Of a stretch of 64,000 nucleotides of DNA, positions 33,132-40,643 are shown in pieces. The stretch is from NCBI RefSeq assembly GCF_004187715.1, contig NZ_QZWF01000002.1:372001-436000 (forward strand), read 5' to 3'. Origin of the DNA: Streptomyces sp. F001. GTDB taxonomy: Bacteria; Actinomycetota; Actinomycetes; Streptomycetales; Streptomycetaceae. The translations under genes were made by a program, and so were the position numbers. Under the pieces are notes generated by a model, which did not search any database, was not told the origin of the DNA, and saw only the letters and a program-made list of their open reading frames with translations. Within the stretch, counting starts at the first letter, position 1. Each line of letters begins with the position of its first letter.

Positions 33132-35024
33132 CTATCGGTCCTGCGAGAGTTCCAGGAGTTCGGCGAAGGTGCCGCCGGCGTGCACGAGGTCGTCGTACCT
33201 GCCCTGTTCCGTGATGCGGCCCTCCTCCATGACCACGATGTGGTCGGCGATCTTCGTGTTCTCCAGTCGGTGGGTGACGACGATGGTGATGCGGTCGCCG
33301 GCGATCGCCTTGATCTGCTCGAAGATCTGGTGCTCGCCGCGCGGATCCATCTGGGAGGTGGGCTCGTCGAGGATCAGCAGGGCGGGACGCCGGTACAGCG
33401 CCCGCGAGCAGGCGATGCGCTGCCACTGCCCGCCCGACAGCTCCGCACCGCCGAAGACCTCACGGGCGAGGAGGGTGTCGAGACCGGCGGGCAGTTCCTC
33501 GACCGGCCGGCGCATGCCGACGGCGTCGATCGCCTCCCACACCGGCCCGTCGTCCCGGGTCCGGGGCTGGCCGAGGGTGATGTTCTCCCGCACCCGCAGC
33601 GGCCACTGCGCGAAGATCTGCGGCACAAGTCCGGTCTGCTGCCAGACAGTTGCCGGGTCGGTCCCGGCGAGGTCCAGGCCGTTCCAGGTCACCCGGCCCT
33701 TGTCGGCGAGGTAGATCCCGGTGATCAGGCGGGTGAGCGTCGACTTGCCGGAGCCGTTGGCGCCGACGACCGCGAGGATCTCGCCCCGCCGCAGGGTGAG
33801 CGACACACCGTGGACGGCGGGCCGGTCCCTGCCCGGGTACTGGTAGACGACCTCCTCCAGCCGGATCTCGTCCACCGGCGCCGCGACCGACAGCGCGCCC
33901 CGTTCGGGCGCTCGCGCCGAGGCGTCGTCCAGGAACGCCTGCATGTCGCTCAGATACAGGCTCGTGTGGAAGAGCGCGGCACCGTTGATGATCACCTGGG
34001 AGAGGCCGGCGAGGGTCGTCTGCACGGCCACGACGGCCGTCGCGGCGAGCGCGAGCGCGATCCTCCCTGTCGTCGCCAGCCAGGCCAGCGCTCCCCAGGT
34101 CGCGACGAGGAACACGCCGGCGACCAAAGAGGAAACCAGAGCGATGCGCAGCGTGCGCGGGGCGGCGGCCAGCGTGCGCCGGTCGCAGCGTTCGGACAGG
34201 GAGTGGTACCAGAAGATGAGGTAGTCCGTCATCGAGTTCGCGCGGACCTCGTCGCCGTACTTGGGCGTCGTGGACCACCAGCGCATCATGCCTTTGACGT
34301 TGCGGTCGGCGATGTTGGCGTAGTGGATCTCGTAGTCCACGCGCGCGGTGAGCACCGCGCCGACACCGGCCGGCAACACGGCGAGGAGCAGGAGGGGCAG
34401 CAGCAACGGGTTGAGCACGGACAGCGCCCCGGCCGCGGTGACCATCCGGATCAGGGCCGACAGGAACCGCTGTGCGTCCGTGACCATCACATGGGTGCGG
34501 ATCACTCCCATCTCCGCGGCTTCCTGACGGTCGGAGAAACCGTCGACGGCGTAGGCCGACGCCTCGACGCGGCAGACCGCCTCCACGAGGGCGGTGTCCG
34601 CCCGGGTGGTGAGCCGGGGAGTGATCCGCCGCTCGGCGTAGGCAGCCACGACGCCCGCGACCCGGGCGACACCGGCGGCGATGCCGACGACCACCAGCGC
34701 CGGCAGGGCCTGCCGGAGACGGTCGGTGACCGTGTCCGCGCCGAGCAGTGGCCCCATCGCGCGGGCCGTCGCCGCCAGCAGGACCGCGGCGGCGGCACCG
34801 GTGACCACCGGGCAGGCCAACAGGAGCAGGACGGCCCGCCGTTCGATGTGCCAGGCCATGGCGATGATGCGGCCCAGGACCTTGGGGATCTGGGCGCTCA
34901 GCCTGCGGAAGGAGGCTTCGCCGAGCGGGTTCACGGAGTACTCGCCCGAGTACCTGATCTCGGCGGGCGGTGGCGGAGGGAGGGCTTGTGTCCGCCGCTC
35001 CTCCCGGGCATCTGCTGAGGCCAA
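33132..35024 (-). CDS. ABC exporter, fused membrane and ATPase domains
   Basis: 630 residues from TTG 35024 (GGAGGAACC upstream). About six transmembrane helices in residues 55-320, then a nucleotide-binding domain: Walker A AVVGANGSGKSTLTRL, signature AELSGGQWQRIACSRAL, Walker B ALLILDEPTSQMD, and H-loop VVTHRLEN. It should work as a homodimer and export a lipid, peptide or drug. The hydrophilic 40-residue N-terminus is unusual. No substrate gene is recognisable in the adjacent 400-bp gap. Confidence 0.88.
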   Translation of the reverse strand: MASADAREERRTQALPPPPPAEIRYSGEYSVNPLGEASFRRLSAQIPKVLGRIIAMAWHIERRAVLLLLACPVVTGAAAAVLLAATARAMGPLLGADTVTDRLRQALPALVVVGIAAGVARVAGVVAAYAERRITPRLTTRADTALVEAVCRVEASAYAVDGFSDRQEAAEMGVIRTHVMVTDAQRFLSALIRMVTAAGALSVLNPLLLPLLLLAVLPAGVGAVLTARVDYEIHYANIADRNVKGMMRWWSTTPKYGDEVRANSMTDYLIFWYHSLSERCDRRTLAAAPRTLRIALVSSLVAGVFLVATWGALAWLATTGRIALALAATAVVAVQTTLAGLSQVIINGAALFHTSLYLSDMQAFLDDASARAPERGALSVAAPVDEIRLEEVVYQYPGRDRPAVHGVSLTLRRGEILAVVGANGSGKSTLTRLITGIYLADKGRVTWNGLDLAGTDPATVWQQTGLVPQIFAQWPLRVRENITLGQPRTRDDGPVWEAIDAVGMRRPVEELPAGLDTLLAREVFGGAELSGGQWQRIACSRALYRRPALLILDEPTSQMDPRGEHQIFEQIKAIAGDRITIVVTHRLENTKIADHIVVMEEGRITEQGRYDDLVHAGGTFAELLELSQDR

Positions 35025-35424
35025 CTCGGTTCCTCCGGTTCGGTCTTGACGTACGTGCCGACGGCGACATCCGGGTCAACGACGTGAGCCGCGTCATCGA
35101 ACACACGTATTTCGGACGGACCGGAATCCGCAGGGCGGAGCGAGTGGAGGCTTGTGCAGGGGCCACGGACCGTTGGGCCATCGGGGTCGGACGGAACGCG
35201 GGATTGGCCGAAACGCCGAGGTGGAGGCGGATGTGGCGGGTGGGACAGCGGAGATGACTCCCGCAGTGGGGCGAGTTGGCCGAGACAGCGCCTCCTTCTC
35301 CTGATCGTTCACGGGCGATTCAGCTCCGTTCATCTGAGCTGCCCAGGATCCGCCATGGGCATGTCGTACATCGTTTTCACGGCGTGCCCTTCACCTGTGC
35401 GGCGATCAGGAAGGACGGCTGCCG
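35025..35424. other. 400-bp divergent intergenic region without a convincing gene
   Basis: Separates the ABC exporter and the exported phosphoesterase. Short open frames exist on both strands, but none has a good ribosome site plus plausible codon use. It must contain the promoters of both genes and a PHO-box-like repeat at 35307-35334. Confidence 0.6.
35307..35334 (+). promoter_or_regulatory. Possible PHO box upstream of the phosphoesterase
   Basis: Direct repeat units GTTCACG (35307), ATTCAGC (35318, 11 nt later) and GTTCATC (35328, 10 nt later). Streptomyces PhoP binds 11-nt direct repeats with the consensus GTTCACC. The first two units have the right spacing; the third is one base short. 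It lies about 90 bp before an exported phosphoesterase gene, a typical Pho target. Confidence 0.4.
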
Positions 35425-38400
35425 ATGCGGTCAACGCGGTGGCGAAGACGGCCGGGTGCCCATGGAACGAGGGGACAACGGCTCGCGGGGGCGGTACTCA
35501 GCGCGCTGCTCCTGGTGAGCGGCAACCTGACGACGGCATACGCCGACTCCGGTGATGAGCGGGGCTCAGCGGGCCTGAGCGACTCGGGCAACGCCACGAC
35601 TCTGCCGACCCTCACCCCCGGCGACGGTTCGTATCTGGAGGGCACGGAGAAGGTCGCGGCCACGCCGACCCTGGCCGGTGACTCCGTGACCAGGCTCGCG
35701 GTGGACGGCAAGCCGATCGACGCCGAGCGGACGGTCGGGGTGTCCCGGCTCAGCTTCGATGTCGGCTCCAACTCGACCGAGGCCCGCTACCACAACCACG
35801 TGCTCGTCAACGGCGACCACCGGGCGGACATCGGCGACCTCGTCAACGAGCGCGGCACGATCGAGATCCCCAACGAGTACCTGGTCAAGGGCGAGAACAA
35901 GATCGAGATCATCGCCGGCGCGGTCGACAGCTCATGCGGCACCAACTACGACGACTTCGTGCTGTCCGACATCAGCCTGGAGCTGCTCGGCGAGGTCGCG
36001 GACGGCGAGGAGAACGCGTACACGTACTCCTTCGGTGACGGAAGCTGCGGTTCCAACACCACGCTCCTGAAGAAGGCGACGCTCACCTTCTTCGCCCTCG
36101 GCGACCCCCAGGGCACCACCGGTCTCCAAGCCGACCTGGACACCACGAAGTTGGCCAACGGCACACACTCCCTCACCGCGACGACGACCTCGGGCAAGAG
36201 CGTCAAGAACACCGTGACGGTGAACAACGCCCCGGCGGGCGCACCTCGTCTGCTGCCCAAGGACGGCACGCTCGTCGCCGGCCCGCAGTCGGTGTTCGCG
36301 ACCTTCCCCGCCGGCGCCGAAGGCGAAGTCGAGTCGCTGACCGTGGACGGGGCCGCCCCCGTCACCGATCCGCACCTCGGCAACGGCGCCGCCACCTTCT
36401 CCTTCGACGTCGGACCGAACTCCATCGACGACCGGTACGACAACCACCTGCTCGTCAACGGCAAGCGCATCGACCTCGGCGGCACCTGGGTGAGCCAACG
36501 GGTCGACATCGCGATTCCGGCGCGGCACCTGGTGCCCGGCGACAACACGATCAAGGTCGTCACCAGCCCGTACAAGGAGAGCTGCGGCAACAACCGCGAC
36601 GACTTCGACATCGCGCGACTCGCGCTCACCTTCGAGGGCGGCACCGTCACCGGCCGGGACATCACGGACGCTTATGCGATGGGCGACGGCAGTTGCGGCA
36701 GCAGCGACACCCGCCTGCGCGAGGTGGAACTGCACTACACGATCGACGCCCCTGCCGTGCACGTCTCCGACACCCTGGGCGCCGGAAACGCGACCCTCGG
36801 TTTCACCGTGGGCAGCAACTCGATCGAGGCCCGCTACCAGAACCACGTCCTGGTGAACGGCCAGAAGCTCGCGCTGGAAAGCGACTTCGTCAGTCAGCAG
36901 GTCGACCTGACCTTCCCCAACGAGTGGCTCGTCCCCGGCTGGAACACGATCGACTTCGTTACCGGCACCTATGTGACCTCGTGCGGCACCAACCGCGACG
37001 ACTTCGCCGTCTCCGGCGTCACGGTCACCCCGGCGCGGGGCACCGCCACCGGCCGGATGGTCAAAGGCTCGTACAGCCTCGGCGACGGCAACTGCGGGGA
37101 CAACGTCAACCCACTGACCGAGATCGACCTCCAGTTCTTCGTCGACGGCCCGGCCCAGGGCCTGCGCGCCGACCTCGACACCACGAGGATCGACGACGGC
37201 AGGCACACCCTGGCCGCGACGTCGAGGACCGGCAGGACCGCGACCCGCCTTCTGGTCACCGACAACTCGGCGCCCCGAACAGCCGCCAGCACCCCCGCCG
37301 CGGGCCAGAAGATCACCACCTCGGTGGTCCTCGACGTCCGCCTCGATGACCCTTCCGGCGTGGTGAGCGGCCCGGACGTGAAGCTCGACGGCAGGCCGAT
37401 CCAGCCGGGCGCGTCCGTCGGCCCCGGCTTGTCCGCCGGCGAGCACACCCTGTCGGTGACGGGTACCGACAGCCTGGGTAACACCGGTACCCGGGAGATC
37501 ACCTTCACCTCCGCCGGCATCCCGGACATCCCCGCCGACCTCACCCCGAAGTCCGGTACGACCGACGCCGGCAGCAGTGTGAAGCTGTCGGCGAAGGTGG
37601 CTGAGCCCGACGGCGGCCCGGTGAGCGCCATCTTCTCCGAGGCCGAGATCCTCACCCCGAACCAGGTGTACGAGGGCACGGCCACGTCCGTCCCCACGAC
37701 GCTCAAGGTCAAGGGCGAGAAGAAGGTGAGGGCCACCGGCCTCGCCCCTGCCGACGGAAGGACGCTGGACGCGCCGGCCGCCGAGGAGGTCACGTTCCAG
37801 CGGTTCGACGTCCGGGTGCAGGGCCACGTCGACGCGCCGGTGCTGCGCTGGGAGGGCGTCATCGATCCCGAGCGGCTCGCCGCGCTGCGCGTGTGGAACA
37901 CCGGCACGAAGGAGTGGGACGTGTTGACGAGCGCCCGCGGCGCAGCCGAGGGCAACACGGTCCTGACCGCCGTCGTCGACCGCAGTTACGTCGACGGTCA
38001 GCTGGTCCACGTCATGGTGACCGGCGAGGATCCGTTCGCCGACGACATCGACGCCGGTGACCCGAACCGGTTCGCCGACCCGGACTCGTACGACTTCTCG
38101 ATGGTCCACTTCACCGACACGCAGTACCTCTCCGAGGGCGCGGTGGAGCAGGAGACGGCCGAGGAACGCGCGGTCTGGGAGAAGGCGTATGGCGACATCA
38201 CCCGCTGGGTCGCCGCCAACAAGGACGAGCGCAAGATCTCCTATGTGGCCCACACCGGCGACATCATCGAGAACAACATCCGCAAACCCGCCGACGAGGC
38301 CACCCGGCGCCAGGTCGTCGGCGAGATGGAGGTGTCCTCGAAGCAGCAGAAGATCCTGGACGACGCGGGCGTGCCGAACGGTGTGATCGCGGGCAACCAC

Positions 38401-39402
38401 GACAACCAGTCGGGCACCGAGAACGGTCCGGACGCGATCTACAACCAGTACTACGGGCCCGAGCGCTACCAGTCGCTGTCGCAGGGCTGGGAGCACGCCG
38501 AGTACGGCGGCCCGTGGCGTGCGGGCGACAACCAGAACCACTACGACCTGTTCTCCGCCGGTGGCGTCGACTTCGTCGTGGTGGGCCTGTCGTACGGGGT
38601 GACGCGTGAGGAGGCCGAATGGGCCGACTCGGTCTTCAAGCGGTTCCCCGACCGCAACGGCATCCTGCTCTCGCACGATTACCTCGCACCGAGCAGCAAC
38701 CCCGACGGCCGCGGGGCCGGATTCTCCGCGCCCGACGGCTCGATGCTCTACAAGACGGTGGTCCAGGACAACCCGAACGTGTTCCTGATCCTCGCCGGTC
38801 ACGAACACGGCGTGGGCACCAACGTGAAGCCGAAGGTCGGCGAGATCGCGCACGGCGTAATCGAACTGCTCGCGGACTACCAGTTCTACACGGTCTCCGC
38901 GGACCGGCTCGGCCTCACCGAGATCGGCGGCTACCAGCCCGGCGACCAACTGCGGTTCGGCTCGAGCTTCTTCCGGATGCTCCAGTTCGACGTCGACCGG
39001 TCGGAACTCACCGTGGACACCTACTCGCCGCTGCTCGACGAGTTCGGCGCCACCGAGTACGACACGAACCACCGCTACGACGGCACCGAGGACAACATGG
39101 TCCTCCCCATCGACCTCAACACCCGCAGGACGACCTTCAAGACCGACTCGCTGGCGCTCTACAACCCCGTGGACGTCATCGGGCGGACCAAGGCCGACTC
39201 CGGTGAGGTCGCCTCGGTCACCTTCAGGGGCCTCAAGCCCGGCACGACCCACGCGTGGTTCGTCACGGCACGCTCCACCGGTGGCGGCGTGACCGCATCC
39301 GAGCCGAGCGTCTTCGTCACCAAGGACAGCCACGGCCGCCCCGGCACCTGGGGTCCGGACGCGCCGACGTACCCATGGTTCACATCACCGGCCGACCGGT
39401 AG
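35425..39402 (+). CDS. Large exported metallophosphoesterase with three Cys-paired modules
   Basis: 1325 residues from ATG 35425 (GGAAGGAC upstream). Signal peptide to about residue 40. Three homologous modules of about 115 residues start near 111, 327 and 460. Each has a RYxNHxLVNG strand, a SCGxNxDDF-like motif and a GDGxCG motif, with Cys pairs 171/208, 387/424 and 520/557, all exactly 37 apart. Ig/FN3-like linkers follow (about 575-880). The catalytic domain (about 890-1230) has VHFTDTQY, HTGDIIENN, AGNHDNQS, LLSHDY and LAGHEHGVGT. A C-terminal FN3-like segment closes the protein. The modules probably bind the substrate or wall polymer (inference). A HupE-like gene follows by 86 bp. Confidence 0.85.
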   Translation: MRSTRWRRRPGAHGTRGQRLAGAVLSALLLVSGNLTTAYADSGDERGSAGLSDSGNATTLPTLTPGDGSYLEGTEKVAATPTLAGDSVTRLAVDGKPIDAERTVGVSRLSFDVGSNSTEARYHNHVLVNGDHRADIGDLVNERGTIEIPNEYLVKGENKIEIIAGAVDSSCGTNYDDFVLSDISLELLGEVADGEENAYTYSFGDGSCGSNTTLLKKATLTFFALGDPQGTTGLQADLDTTKLANGTHSLTATTTSGKSVKNTVTVNNAPAGAPRLLPKDGTLVAGPQSVFATFPAGAEGEVESLTVDGAAPVTDPHLGNGAATFSFDVGPNSIDDRYDNHLLVNGKRIDLGGTWVSQRVDIAIPARHLVPGDNTIKVVTSPYKESCGNNRDDFDIARLALTFEGGTVTGRDITDAYAMGDGSCGSSDTRLREVELHYTIDAPAVHVSDTLGAGNATLGFTVGSNSIEARYQNHVLVNGQKLALESDFVSQQVDLTFPNEWLVPGWNTIDFVTGTYVTSCGTNRDDFAVSGVTVTPARGTATGRMVKGSYSLGDGNCGDNVNPLTEIDLQFFVDGPAQGLRADLDTTRIDDGRHTLAATSRTGRTATRLLVTDNSAPRTAASTPAAGQKITTSVVLDVRLDDPSGVVSGPDVKLDGRPIQPGASVGPGLSAGEHTLSVTGTDSLGNTGTREITFTSAGIPDIPADLTPKSGTTDAGSSVKLSAKVAEPDGGPVSAIFSEAEILTPNQVYEGTATSVPTTLKVKGEKKVRATGLAPADGRTLDAPAAEEVTFQRFDVRVQGHVDAPVLRWEGVIDPERLAALRVWNTGTKEWDVLTSARGAAEGNTVLTAVVDRSYVDGQLVHVMVTGEDPFADDIDAGDPNRFADPDSYDFSMVHFTDTQYLSEGAVEQETAEERAVWEKAYGDITRWVAANKDERKISYVAHTGDIIENNIRKPADEATRRQVVGEMEVSSKQQKILDDAGVPNGVIAGNHDNQSGTENGPDAIYNQYYGPERYQSLSQGWEHAEYGGPWRAGDNQNHYDLFSAGGVDFVVVGLSYGVTREEAEWADSVFKRFPDRNGILLSHDYLAPSSNPDGRGAGFSAPDGSMLYKTVVQDNPNVFLILAGHEHGVGTNVKPKVGEIAHGVIELLADYQFYTVSADRLGLTEIGGYQPGDQLRFGSSFFRMLQFDVDRSELTVDTYSPLLDEFGATEYDTNHRYDGTEDNMVLPIDLNTRRTTFKTDSLALYNPVDVIGRTKADSGEVASVTFRGLKPGTTHAWFVTARSTGGGVTASEPSVFVTKDSHGRPGTWGPDAPTYPWFTSPADR

Positions 39403-39488: not shown

Positions 39489-40643
39489 ATGCCTCTGCCT
39501 TCACCGGCGGTGCCCCGGCTCCCCGCCGCGCTCCTGACCGTCGCCGCCGCCGTGGTGGCCCTGCTCGGCGCCGGCCTCGCCCACTCGGCACCCGCCATCG
39601 CACACGACGCGACCTCAACGGCCTATGTCGAGGTGACGGGCACCGGAGCCGACGTCGAGGCAACCCTCGACCTCGAGTACGACCTGCTCATGAAGTCGGC
39701 CTGGCTCTACGCCGAGGCGTACGAGGCGAAGACCCGCACCGACCAACTGCACCAGCTCAAGACCAACGCCGACGCGGTGACCGAGTACGTCACCGAACGC
39801 TTCGCTGTCACTTACGACGACCAGCCCTGCGCACCCCGCCGCGTCGGCGACGCCGACGTTCGCCCCCGCGGCAACCGGCCCTTCGCGGTCCTCACCCTGG
39901 CCTACGACTGCCCGCCCGCCGCCGACGGCAGCCACACCATCTCCAGCACCCTGTTCCCCGACTCCGAGACCTTCGTCCACAGCACGGAGACGATCGTCCA
40001 CTACGACATCGGCGGGCAGCGCGGCTCCCAGGTCCTGACGGCCGCCGAACCGACCCTGAAGACCGGCGCAGGCCATGAGCCCCACCAGATCCGGGAGTTC
40101 TTCCTCCTCGGCACCGAACATCTGCTGTTCGGCCTGGATCACCTCCTTTTCCTGCTCTGCCTGCTCATCGGCGCCCGCGACCTGCGCGACATCGTGCTCA
40201 CGGCCACCGCCTTCACCGCGGCACACAGCGTCACCTTCCTGCTGGCCGCCATGGGCGTGGTGAGCGTGCCGGGCTCGGTCGTGGAGCCGGTCATCGCGGC
40301 CTCCATCGCCGTCATGGCGCTCGCGGCCCTCGTCCTGCGCGACCAAGAGACGTCGGGACGCCGGCGCCTCGCGGTCGTCTTCCTCTTCGGCCTCGTGCAC
40401 GGCCTCGGCTTCGCCGGCGCGCTCGGAATCGAGGACAGCTGGTCCTGGGAACTGCTGCTGTCGCTGCTCAGCTTCAACGTCGGCATTGAGGCGGTGCAGT
40501 TGGGCATCATCGCCGTCGTCTTCCCCTTGCTGCTCCTCCTCCGCCGAACCCCGACACACCGCTGGGTCCTGCCCGCACTCACCGCGCCCATAGTGATCGT
40601 CAGCCTCTACTGGTTCTGGGACCGGGTGACGGTGGCGGCATGA
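39489..40643 (+). CDS. HupE/UreJ-like membrane protein
   Basis: 384 residues. Signal peptide or first helix, then an exported domain of about 190 residues (with Cys in DQPCAPRR and AYDCPPA), then six or so transmembrane helices. His-containing helices FLLGTEHLLFGLDHLLFLL, TAFTAAHSVTFLLA and LFGLVHGLGFAGAL are characteristic of the HupE/UreJ family, suspected nickel/cobalt permeases. It lies 86 bp after the exported phosphoesterase on the same strand, so a shared transcript is likely. Whether it supplies metal to that enzyme is a testable guess. The ribosome site is weak, so the start could shift. Confidence 0.78.
   Translation: MPLPSPAVPRLPAALLTVAAAVVALLGAGLAHSAPAIAHDATSTAYVEVTGTGADVEATLDLEYDLLMKSAWLYAEAYEAKTRTDQLHQLKTNADAVTEYVTERFAVTYDDQPCAPRRVGDADVRPRGNRPFAVLTLAYDCPPAADGSHTISSTLFPDSETFVHSTETIVHYDIGGQRGSQVLTAAEPTLKTGAGHEPHQIREFFLLGTEHLLFGLDHLLFLLCLLIGARDLRDIVLTATAFTAAHSVTFLLAAMGVVSVPGSVVEPVIAASIAVMALAALVLRDQETSGRRRLAVVFLFGLVHGLGFAGALGIEDSWSWELLLSLLSFNVGIEAVQLGIIAVVFPLLLLLRRTPTHRWVLPALTAPIVIVSLYWFWDRVTVAA

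What the first reader, a model, noticed from the sequence alone, without database searches (positions are those of the whole stretch)
35425..39402. Exported phosphoesterase with a triplicated, possibly undescribed Cys-paired module
Three modules of about 115 residues share RYxNHxLVNG, SCGxNxDDF-like and GDGxCG motifs, and in all three the cysteines are exactly 37 residues apart (171/208, 387/424, 520/557). I do not recognise a named domain. The His/Asn/Asp-rich conserved residues look like ligand or metal binding. A phosphoesterase with three binding modules suggests attack on a wall polymer such as teichoic-acid-like phosphodiesters or phosphorylated glycans.
Basis: partly seen in the sequence, partly recalled or inferred. 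Interest (0 to 1): 0.72.

Follow-up and report, generated by a model that had tools for sequence, protein, structure and literature searches.

The report
Phosphate-scavenging enzyme with metal-loading partner
This actinobacterial gene encodes a large phosphoesterase-type protein, predicted to be exported, that carries three copies of an unnamed two-cysteine domain and lies directly beside a gene for a membrane protein that would likely load it with metal outside the cell when phosphate runs short.

Summary
The ORF encodes 1325 residues with exactly six cysteines, in three pairs each 37 apart. The triplet is old: 150 of 153 module-bearing sequences hold three. Alone, no module tested reaches a curated family cut-off. 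A confident model (pLDDT 93.5) indicates a beta-sandwich inserted in an Ig-like domain. The catalytic part is a calcineurin-type phosphoesterase, nearest in fold to SMPDL3A and GpdQ phosphodiesterases.

The larger finding lies next door. The adjacent gene encodes an Ang-2/HupE-UreJ_2 protein whose predicted mature end is histidine; a relative binds copper (PMC12537917). In 392 Streptomyces genomes, 22 of 22 loci of this type lie by a calcineurin-type phosphoesterase gene, of three kinds, against 5 of 36 other HupE loci. That metallophosphatases are common neighbours was already published. Distant relatives use another His-first protein, some with a NicO transporter; three copies lack the permease. 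PHO-box-like repeats precede the gene. I propose phosphate-starvation scavenging with dedicated external metal loading; loading itself is untested. Wall-polymer attack is unsupported.

The parts
35307..35334 (+). PHO-box-like tandem repeat, three GTTCAC-type units spaced 11 and 10 nt
   Evidence: score 23.0, p 0.005 (1 of 201) against dinucleotide shuffles; the same scan gives 21.0 upstream of the own pstS
35425..39402 (+). Phosphoesterase CDS, 1325 aa
35425..35544 (+). Predicted signal peptide, residues 1-40 (..TTAYA|DSG)
   Evidence: By eye
35596..35736 (+). First half of Ig-like host domain 1
35737..36087 (+). Module 1 (residues 105-221), Cys 171/208
36088..36234 (+). Second half of Ig-like host domain 1
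36235..36378 (+). First half of presumed Ig-like host domain 2
   Evidence: Sequence pattern only; joined halves gave no Pfam match
36385..36753 (+). Module 2 (residues 321-443), Cys 387/424
36763..37155 (+). Module 3 (residues 447-577), Cys 520/557
37162..37278 (+). Second half of presumed Ig-like host domain 2
   Evidence: Sequence pattern only
38077..39144 (+). Calcineurin-type phosphoesterase domain (residues 885-1240)
   Evidence: PF00149 at 894-1128; fold matches
38116..38124 (+). Motif I, D898-x-Q900
   Evidence: Invariant in 32 of 32 aligned sequences (D)
38260..38262 (+). Motif II, D946
   Evidence: Invariant in 32 of 32
38395..38403 (+). Motif III, N991-H992-D993
   Evidence: Invariant in 32 of 32
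38674..38676 (+). Motif IV, H1084
   Evidence: Invariant in 32 of 32
38800..38808 (+). Motif V, H1126-x-H1128
   Evidence: Invariant in 32 of 32
39489..40643 (+). Partner gene: Ang-2/HupE-UreJ_2 membrane protein
   Evidence: PF13795 143.1 bits, cut-off 24.5
39603..39605 (+). Predicted N-terminal His of the mature partner (..APAIA|HDATS)
39603..40076 (+). Ang-2-type extracytoplasmic domain
40077..40640 (+). HupE/UreJ_2 permease domain

Best explanation
The gene encodes a calcineurin-type phosphoesterase, predicted to be exported, that likely scavenges phosphate from phosphodiesters during phosphate starvation and would be loaded with its metals outside the cell by the neighbouring protein, whose predicted mature end is a metal-binding histidine. 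Shown: a PF00149 catalytic domain with invariant metal-ligand motifs; three two-cysteine modules; PHO-box-like repeats upstream; the partner gene next door, with a predicted His at the mature N terminus in every copy examined. Inferred: disulphides in the modules; modules acting as docking arms on insoluble polysaccharide; PhoP control; phosphodiesterase activity. Inferred and untested: the partner's ectodomain catches a metal ion (copper for its published relative MmAng-2a; iron, zinc or manganese would suit a dimetal phosphatase) at the outer face of the membrane and hands it to the freshly exported enzyme, with the permease, where present, exporting or buffering that metal.
Against: 8 of 32 loci have the enzyme with no partner in the flanks held, so the partner is dispensable or lies elsewhere; G727 and G755 have the enzyme and no PF13795 match in the genome. 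The authors who characterised Ang-2 propose metal uptake, not loading (PMC12537917). MmAng-2a binds copper best, which is not a usual dimetal phosphatase metal. 14 of 31 upstream regions are not significant for PHO boxes, among them 6 of 7 Streptosporangiaceae. The catalytic model is of middling confidence (pLDDT 64). No activity, metal content or regulation was measured. The loci are related by descent, so the Fisher value 1.4e-11 is overstated.
Confidence: 0.45

Rival explanations
1. The partner is a metal-uptake system, as its discoverers propose, and is kept beside the phosphatase because both serve scarcity: it feeds metal into the cell, and the exported enzyme gets its metal from the medium.
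For: PMC12537917 (section 8 read in full) proposes capture and uptake for Ang-1 and Ang-2, and cites HupE of Rhizobium as a nickel permease.
Against: Copies that keep the His-first ectodomain but lack the permease (L022, L029, L037) cannot import by themselves. The link is to one superfamily of phosphoesterases in 22 of 22, which uptake alone does not predict.
Confidence: 0.25
2. Co-regulation only: enzyme and metal-binding protein are both phosphate-starvation genes and never act on each other; the metal protein answers the shift in metal balance when phosphate is scarce.
For: PHO-box-like repeats also precede the Ang-2 gene in 5 of 6 Ang-2/PAP cassettes at p<=0.05; 8 of 32 loci have the enzyme alone.
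Against: Does not explain the link to three kinds of phosphoesterase, or the exchange for another His-first protein with NicO.
Confidence: 0.15
3. One reading: the modules bind a bacterial wall polymer and the enzyme cuts teichoic-acid-like phosphodiesters.
For: Phosphodiesterase-like fold; weak PF14683 and PF06832 signals.
Against: The only widely conserved neighbour cluster was the HupE partner; orthologues carry CBM5/12 modules, which point to chitin-like polysaccharide.
Confidence: 0.1
4. The modules are membrane- or lipid-docking domains of PLAT-like fold and the enzyme is a sphingomyelinase- or phospholipase-like scavenger of debris.
Confidence: 0.15

Closest known systems
Ang-2 HupE/UreJ-2 'anglerase' (PMC12537917, Nat Commun 2025)
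   Same: Partner gene: PF13795 permease, predicted His after the signal peptide, Actinomycetota; the paper already lists metallophosphatases among the most frequent neighbours of Ang-2.
   Different: The paper proposes uptake. In the parts I read (abstract, section 8, passages) it does not describe this enzyme, the nested modules, copies without the permease, the second His-first protein with NicO, or PHO-box-like repeats.
GpdQ and acid-sphingomyelinase-like (SMPDL3) phosphodiesterases
   Same: Calcineurin-type fold and dimetal motifs.
   Different: 9-16% identity in the structural alignments; motif I is D-x-Q where I recall D-x-H; N-terminal Ig-plus-module arms; no PDB sequence match at E<=1.
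PF14683 CBM-like (polysaccharide lyase family 4, domain III)
   Same: Best stretch covers the strand pattern around IP...LvPGdNtI; whole-protein score just over the cut-off.
   Different: Modules scanned alone fall short; this module adds two conserved Cys and a GDGxCG turn and sits inside an Ig-like host. Whether PF14683 members have such Cys was not checked.
TerC-family MeeF/MeeY exoenzyme metalation in Bacillus subtilis (PMC10550928)
   Same: Membrane proteins that serve metal loading of exported enzymes; the proposed mode of action.
   Different: Other protein family; manganese; tied to the secretion pathway in general rather than paired with one enzyme gene (abstract).

Membership tests
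Calcineurin-like metallophosphoesterase (PF00149) | Pfam profile above curated cut-off | tested here: met
   38.3 bits against 21.5
Calcineurin-like metallophosphoesterase (PF00149) | Metal-ligand motifs II to V: D, N-H, H, H-x-H (set recalled) | tested here: met
   D946, N991-H992, H1084, H1126-x-H1128 invariant in 32 of 32
Calcineurin-like metallophosphoesterase (PF00149) | Motif I D-x-H (common, recalled; not universal in the superfamily) | tested here: inconclusive
   Asp present, second ligand reads Q900, invariant in 32 of 32; the PAP of L028 also reads D-P-Q by eye
GpdQ / acid-sphingomyelinase-like phosphodiesterase | Fold and activity of the family | tested here: inconclusive
   Best fold matches, but the similarity is superfamily-wide, 9-16% identity, model pLDDT 64; activity not testable
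PF14683 CBM-like | Single module above the curated cut-off of 27 bits | tested here: not met
   Window stretches 15.2, 12.4 bits and no hit; 5 of 61 modules at E<=0.05, best 0.0026
PLAT/LH2 domain | PLAT fold | tested here: inconclusive
Bacterial Ig-like host (PF17957 Big_7) | Profile match of the host with the module removed | tested here: inconclusive
Ang-2 HupE/UreJ-2 (partner gene) | PF13795 permease with predicted His at the mature N terminus | tested here: met
   143.1 bits, cut-off 24.5; AIA|HDATS; predicted His in 24 of 24 copies
Ang-2 HupE/UreJ-2 (partner gene) | Copper binding | not testable with these tools
   Published for MmAng-2a only
Pho regulon | 11-nt direct repeat units with GTTCACC-like core upstream | tested here: met
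   spacings 11 and 10 (not 11 and 11), as the same scan finds for the own pstS
Pho regulon | PhoP binding and phosphate response | not testable with these tools
   No expression data
TerC exoenzyme-metalation proteins | TerC family membership | tested here: not met
   Partner matches only the two HupE families at E<=1

The most novel reading that the evidence does not exclude
A dedicated external metal-loading device for secreted dimetal phosphatases: a membrane-tethered, His-first metallochaperone paired with a phosphatase gene, in which phosphatase (three kinds), His-first domain (two kinds) and permease (HupE, NicO or none) are all swappable while the pairing itself is kept, even across phyla.
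Probability: 0.35. Interest if true: 0.82.

Novelty: new variant of a known kind. Interest (0 to 1): 0.62.

Why it matters
How exported metalloenzymes get the right metal is an open question with few known systems. A gene pair this tight, with natural versions lacking the permease, makes it directly testable, and phosphate release by actinobacteria matters in soils. It would also turn the published 'uptake' reading of Ang-2 proteins around. The nested two-cysteine module is a domain without a curated name on an enzyme found in many actinobacterial families.

Tried and rejected
Fusions: P0244 and P0247 looked like enzyme-HupE fusions but read as frame-broken or internally deleted sequences; rejected. 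Module elsewhere: none in the own genome beyond this ORF, none in the 395 other genomes of the phylum sample (the tool scores a limited number of candidates per genome), 6 of 392 Streptomyces with the own genome. Among 19 shorter proteins with module similarity I read two: P0126 runs into what looks like a shifted frame and P0129 stops inside module 2; the other 17 were not read, so other architectures are not excluded. PDB sequence searches: nothing significant for the whole protein, catalytic domain, Ig1 plus module (best E 0.17) or modules (best E 0.58, a cellulose synthase subunit). NCBIfam gave nothing significant; PHROGs gave one weak exonuclease-type match in the catalytic part (E 3.6e-4). 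Galactose-binding-like folds were not among the rows; that list is dominated by Ig hits and is no test of absence. The Pfam scan of the third gene of PAP cassettes failed with its call (27, 29) and was not repeated. The first pstS control read the wrong strand, the second printed no score; the third is the one cited. The spacing options in the PHO test (10 or 11) were chosen; shuffles had the same freedom. A first His count (12 of 24) used too strict a permease pattern and was redone without it (24 of 24). In one search the partner was read in a wrong frame and redone. The published neighbour list of Ang-2 also names DUF916; I did not test that.
Full report
Observation. The ORF at 35425-39402 is real: 312 database proteins match its module region at E<=0.001 (only the 7989 best candidates scored, 120 listed), from Streptomyces, Nonomuraea, Microbispora, Streptosporangium, Jiangella, Promicromonospora and others, the named ones mostly as metallophosphoesterase. 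That the window is Streptomyces is inferred: genomes of its genus hold contigs whose lengths equal those of named Streptomyces records (G011/L025, G658/L014). The three Cys pairs are as reported. Of 154 proteins examined 150 hold three modules, three hold two and one, a paralogue, none (the window's protein enters three times). A tree of 94 modules groups them by position (3 changes, 2 being the least possible, against 44.9 in shuffles), so the triplication looks older than the families sampled; columns are few and deep forks weak.

The enzyme. PF00149 matches residues 894-1128. D898, Q900, D946, N991, H992, H1084, H1126 and H1128 are invariant in 32 aligned sequences. Q900 stands where I recall His as usual; the purple acid phosphatase (PAP) of L028 also reads D-P-Q by eye. 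The model has pLDDT 64; the nearest folds are SMPDL3A/B, Lmo2642, a zebrafish dimetal phosphatase and GpdQ. Six of six tested orthologues of Micromonosporaceae and Kribbella end in CBM5/12 modules, so anchoring to insoluble polysaccharide is plausible; in the window's own protein that would fall to the three modules (inference).

Regulation. Upstream of the gene lie repeats that resemble the S. coelicolor PHO-box core GTTCACC in 11-nt units (from passages of PMC4415409). Window score 23.0, p 0.005. Of 31 upstream regions (window and 30 loci; L019 dropped for lack of sequence) 17 reach p<=0.05: 13 of 14 Streptomyces, 1 of 7 Streptosporangiaceae, 3 of 10 others; on the opposite strand 1 of 31. 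Other genes: 10 of 120; own pstS 21.0, p 0.005. Five of six Ang-2/PAP cassettes also reach p<=0.05.

The partner. The next gene, 39489-40643, is a HupE/UreJ_2 protein. A paper of 2025 describes such proteins in Actinomycetota as Ang-2 'anglerases' with an N-terminal His, copper binding at 62 nM for MmAng-2a, and metallophosphatases among the commonest neighbours; it proposes metal uptake (PMC12537917; abstract, section 8 in full and passages). It is the only paper found with the word anglerase. So the neighbourhood as such is not new. What I add: (a) among 32 loci, an Ang-2 ectodomain gene is directly downstream in 19, all 19 with AxA|H, and 17 of the 19 with a permease; (b) of the other 13, five have a different His-first protein upstream (5 of 5 with AAA or ASA|HPFGDPQ), directly in two, with NicO between in three; it has no Pfam match in the one copy scanned, and profile comparison makes it a distant relative of Ang-2 (82%, E 9.8e-6); (c) eight have no partner in the flanks held.

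Survey. PF13795 was sought in 392 Streptomyces genomes (42 hit), 61 relatives (6 hit) and 198 of the phylum (4 hit). I examined 59 HupE places, 58 of the 59 places and one of another genus (L062). One stop-broken copy (L154) gave no match and was dropped; not fetched were G801:C2 and G229:C4 (below cut-off) and G272:C6 (just above it). Of 58 loci, 22 have an Ang-2-type ectodomain, all in Streptomyces, and all 22 have a calcineurin-type phosphoesterase ORF in the stretch: 15 PAP and 4 of this family directly adjacent; 3 of a third kind (L111-L113; PF00149 in all three, CBM96 in two), adjacent and divergent in two and about 1.5 kb off in L111. Of the 36 others, 5 have any such ORF by motif and none a homologue of the three kinds by tblastn. 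Fisher 1.4e-11, not corrected for descent. Of six genomes with modules, four have PF13795 against 38 of the other 386 (p 0.0015). Of 13 plasmid-collection records with a match to the partner, the only two covering 80% or more, a Nonomuraea and a Paenibacillus, both have a calcineurin-motif ORF directly downstream, so the pairing reaches beyond Actinomycetota.

Mechanism. Three facts favour loading over uptake: the pairing is with one superfamily of phosphoesterases whatever the kind; the permease can be absent or another one while a His-first ectodomain stays; and metal loading of exported enzymes by membrane proteins has a precedent in TerC proteins (PMC10550928, abstract and outline). NicO belongs to the LysE transporter superfamily, in which RcnA serves nickel and cobalt efflux (PMC4608589, passages); HupE is not mentioned there. 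None of this shows transfer. Copper as the best metal of MmAng-2a, and enzymes without a partner, speak against it or limit it.

Verdict. Observation confirmed; wall-polymer reading not supported; novelty a new variant of a known kind.

Noticed in passing
36 non-Ang-2 HupE loci, e.g. L056:5834-6979: The other HupE_UreJ_2 loci have a homologue of the DUF3500 (PF12006) gene of L056 in 34 of 36, against 0 of 22 Ang-2 loci (tblastn; Pfam for L056): a second strict pairing. Three papers hold the word DUF3500 (listing seen only).
   Followed up: partly
L163:4836-8379: A Paenibacillus (Bacillota) His-first HupE-type gene is followed by a calcineurin-motif ORF (PAP-like by eye), although the 2025 paper calls Ang-2 restricted to Actinomycetota.
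   Followed up: partly
L022:14053-14619, L029 to 14565, L037:3701-4294: Ang-2 proteins that end in one predicted membrane helix and a basic tail in place of the permease.
   Followed up: yes
L019, L020, L022, L029: A conserved gene (cluster c2, about 455 aa, membrane sensor-like N terminus by eye) follows the cassette in four Nonomuraea-type loci; not identified by a profile.
   Followed up: no
L027 and L034: Agromyces and Tessaracoccus homologues carry two modules instead of three.
   Followed up: partly
window 33132-35024 (-): ABC-transporter-like ORF upstream, divergent; an ORF with a similar N-terminal stretch lies near the Ang-2/PAP cassette of L061 (2461-4395). May be chance.
   Followed up: no
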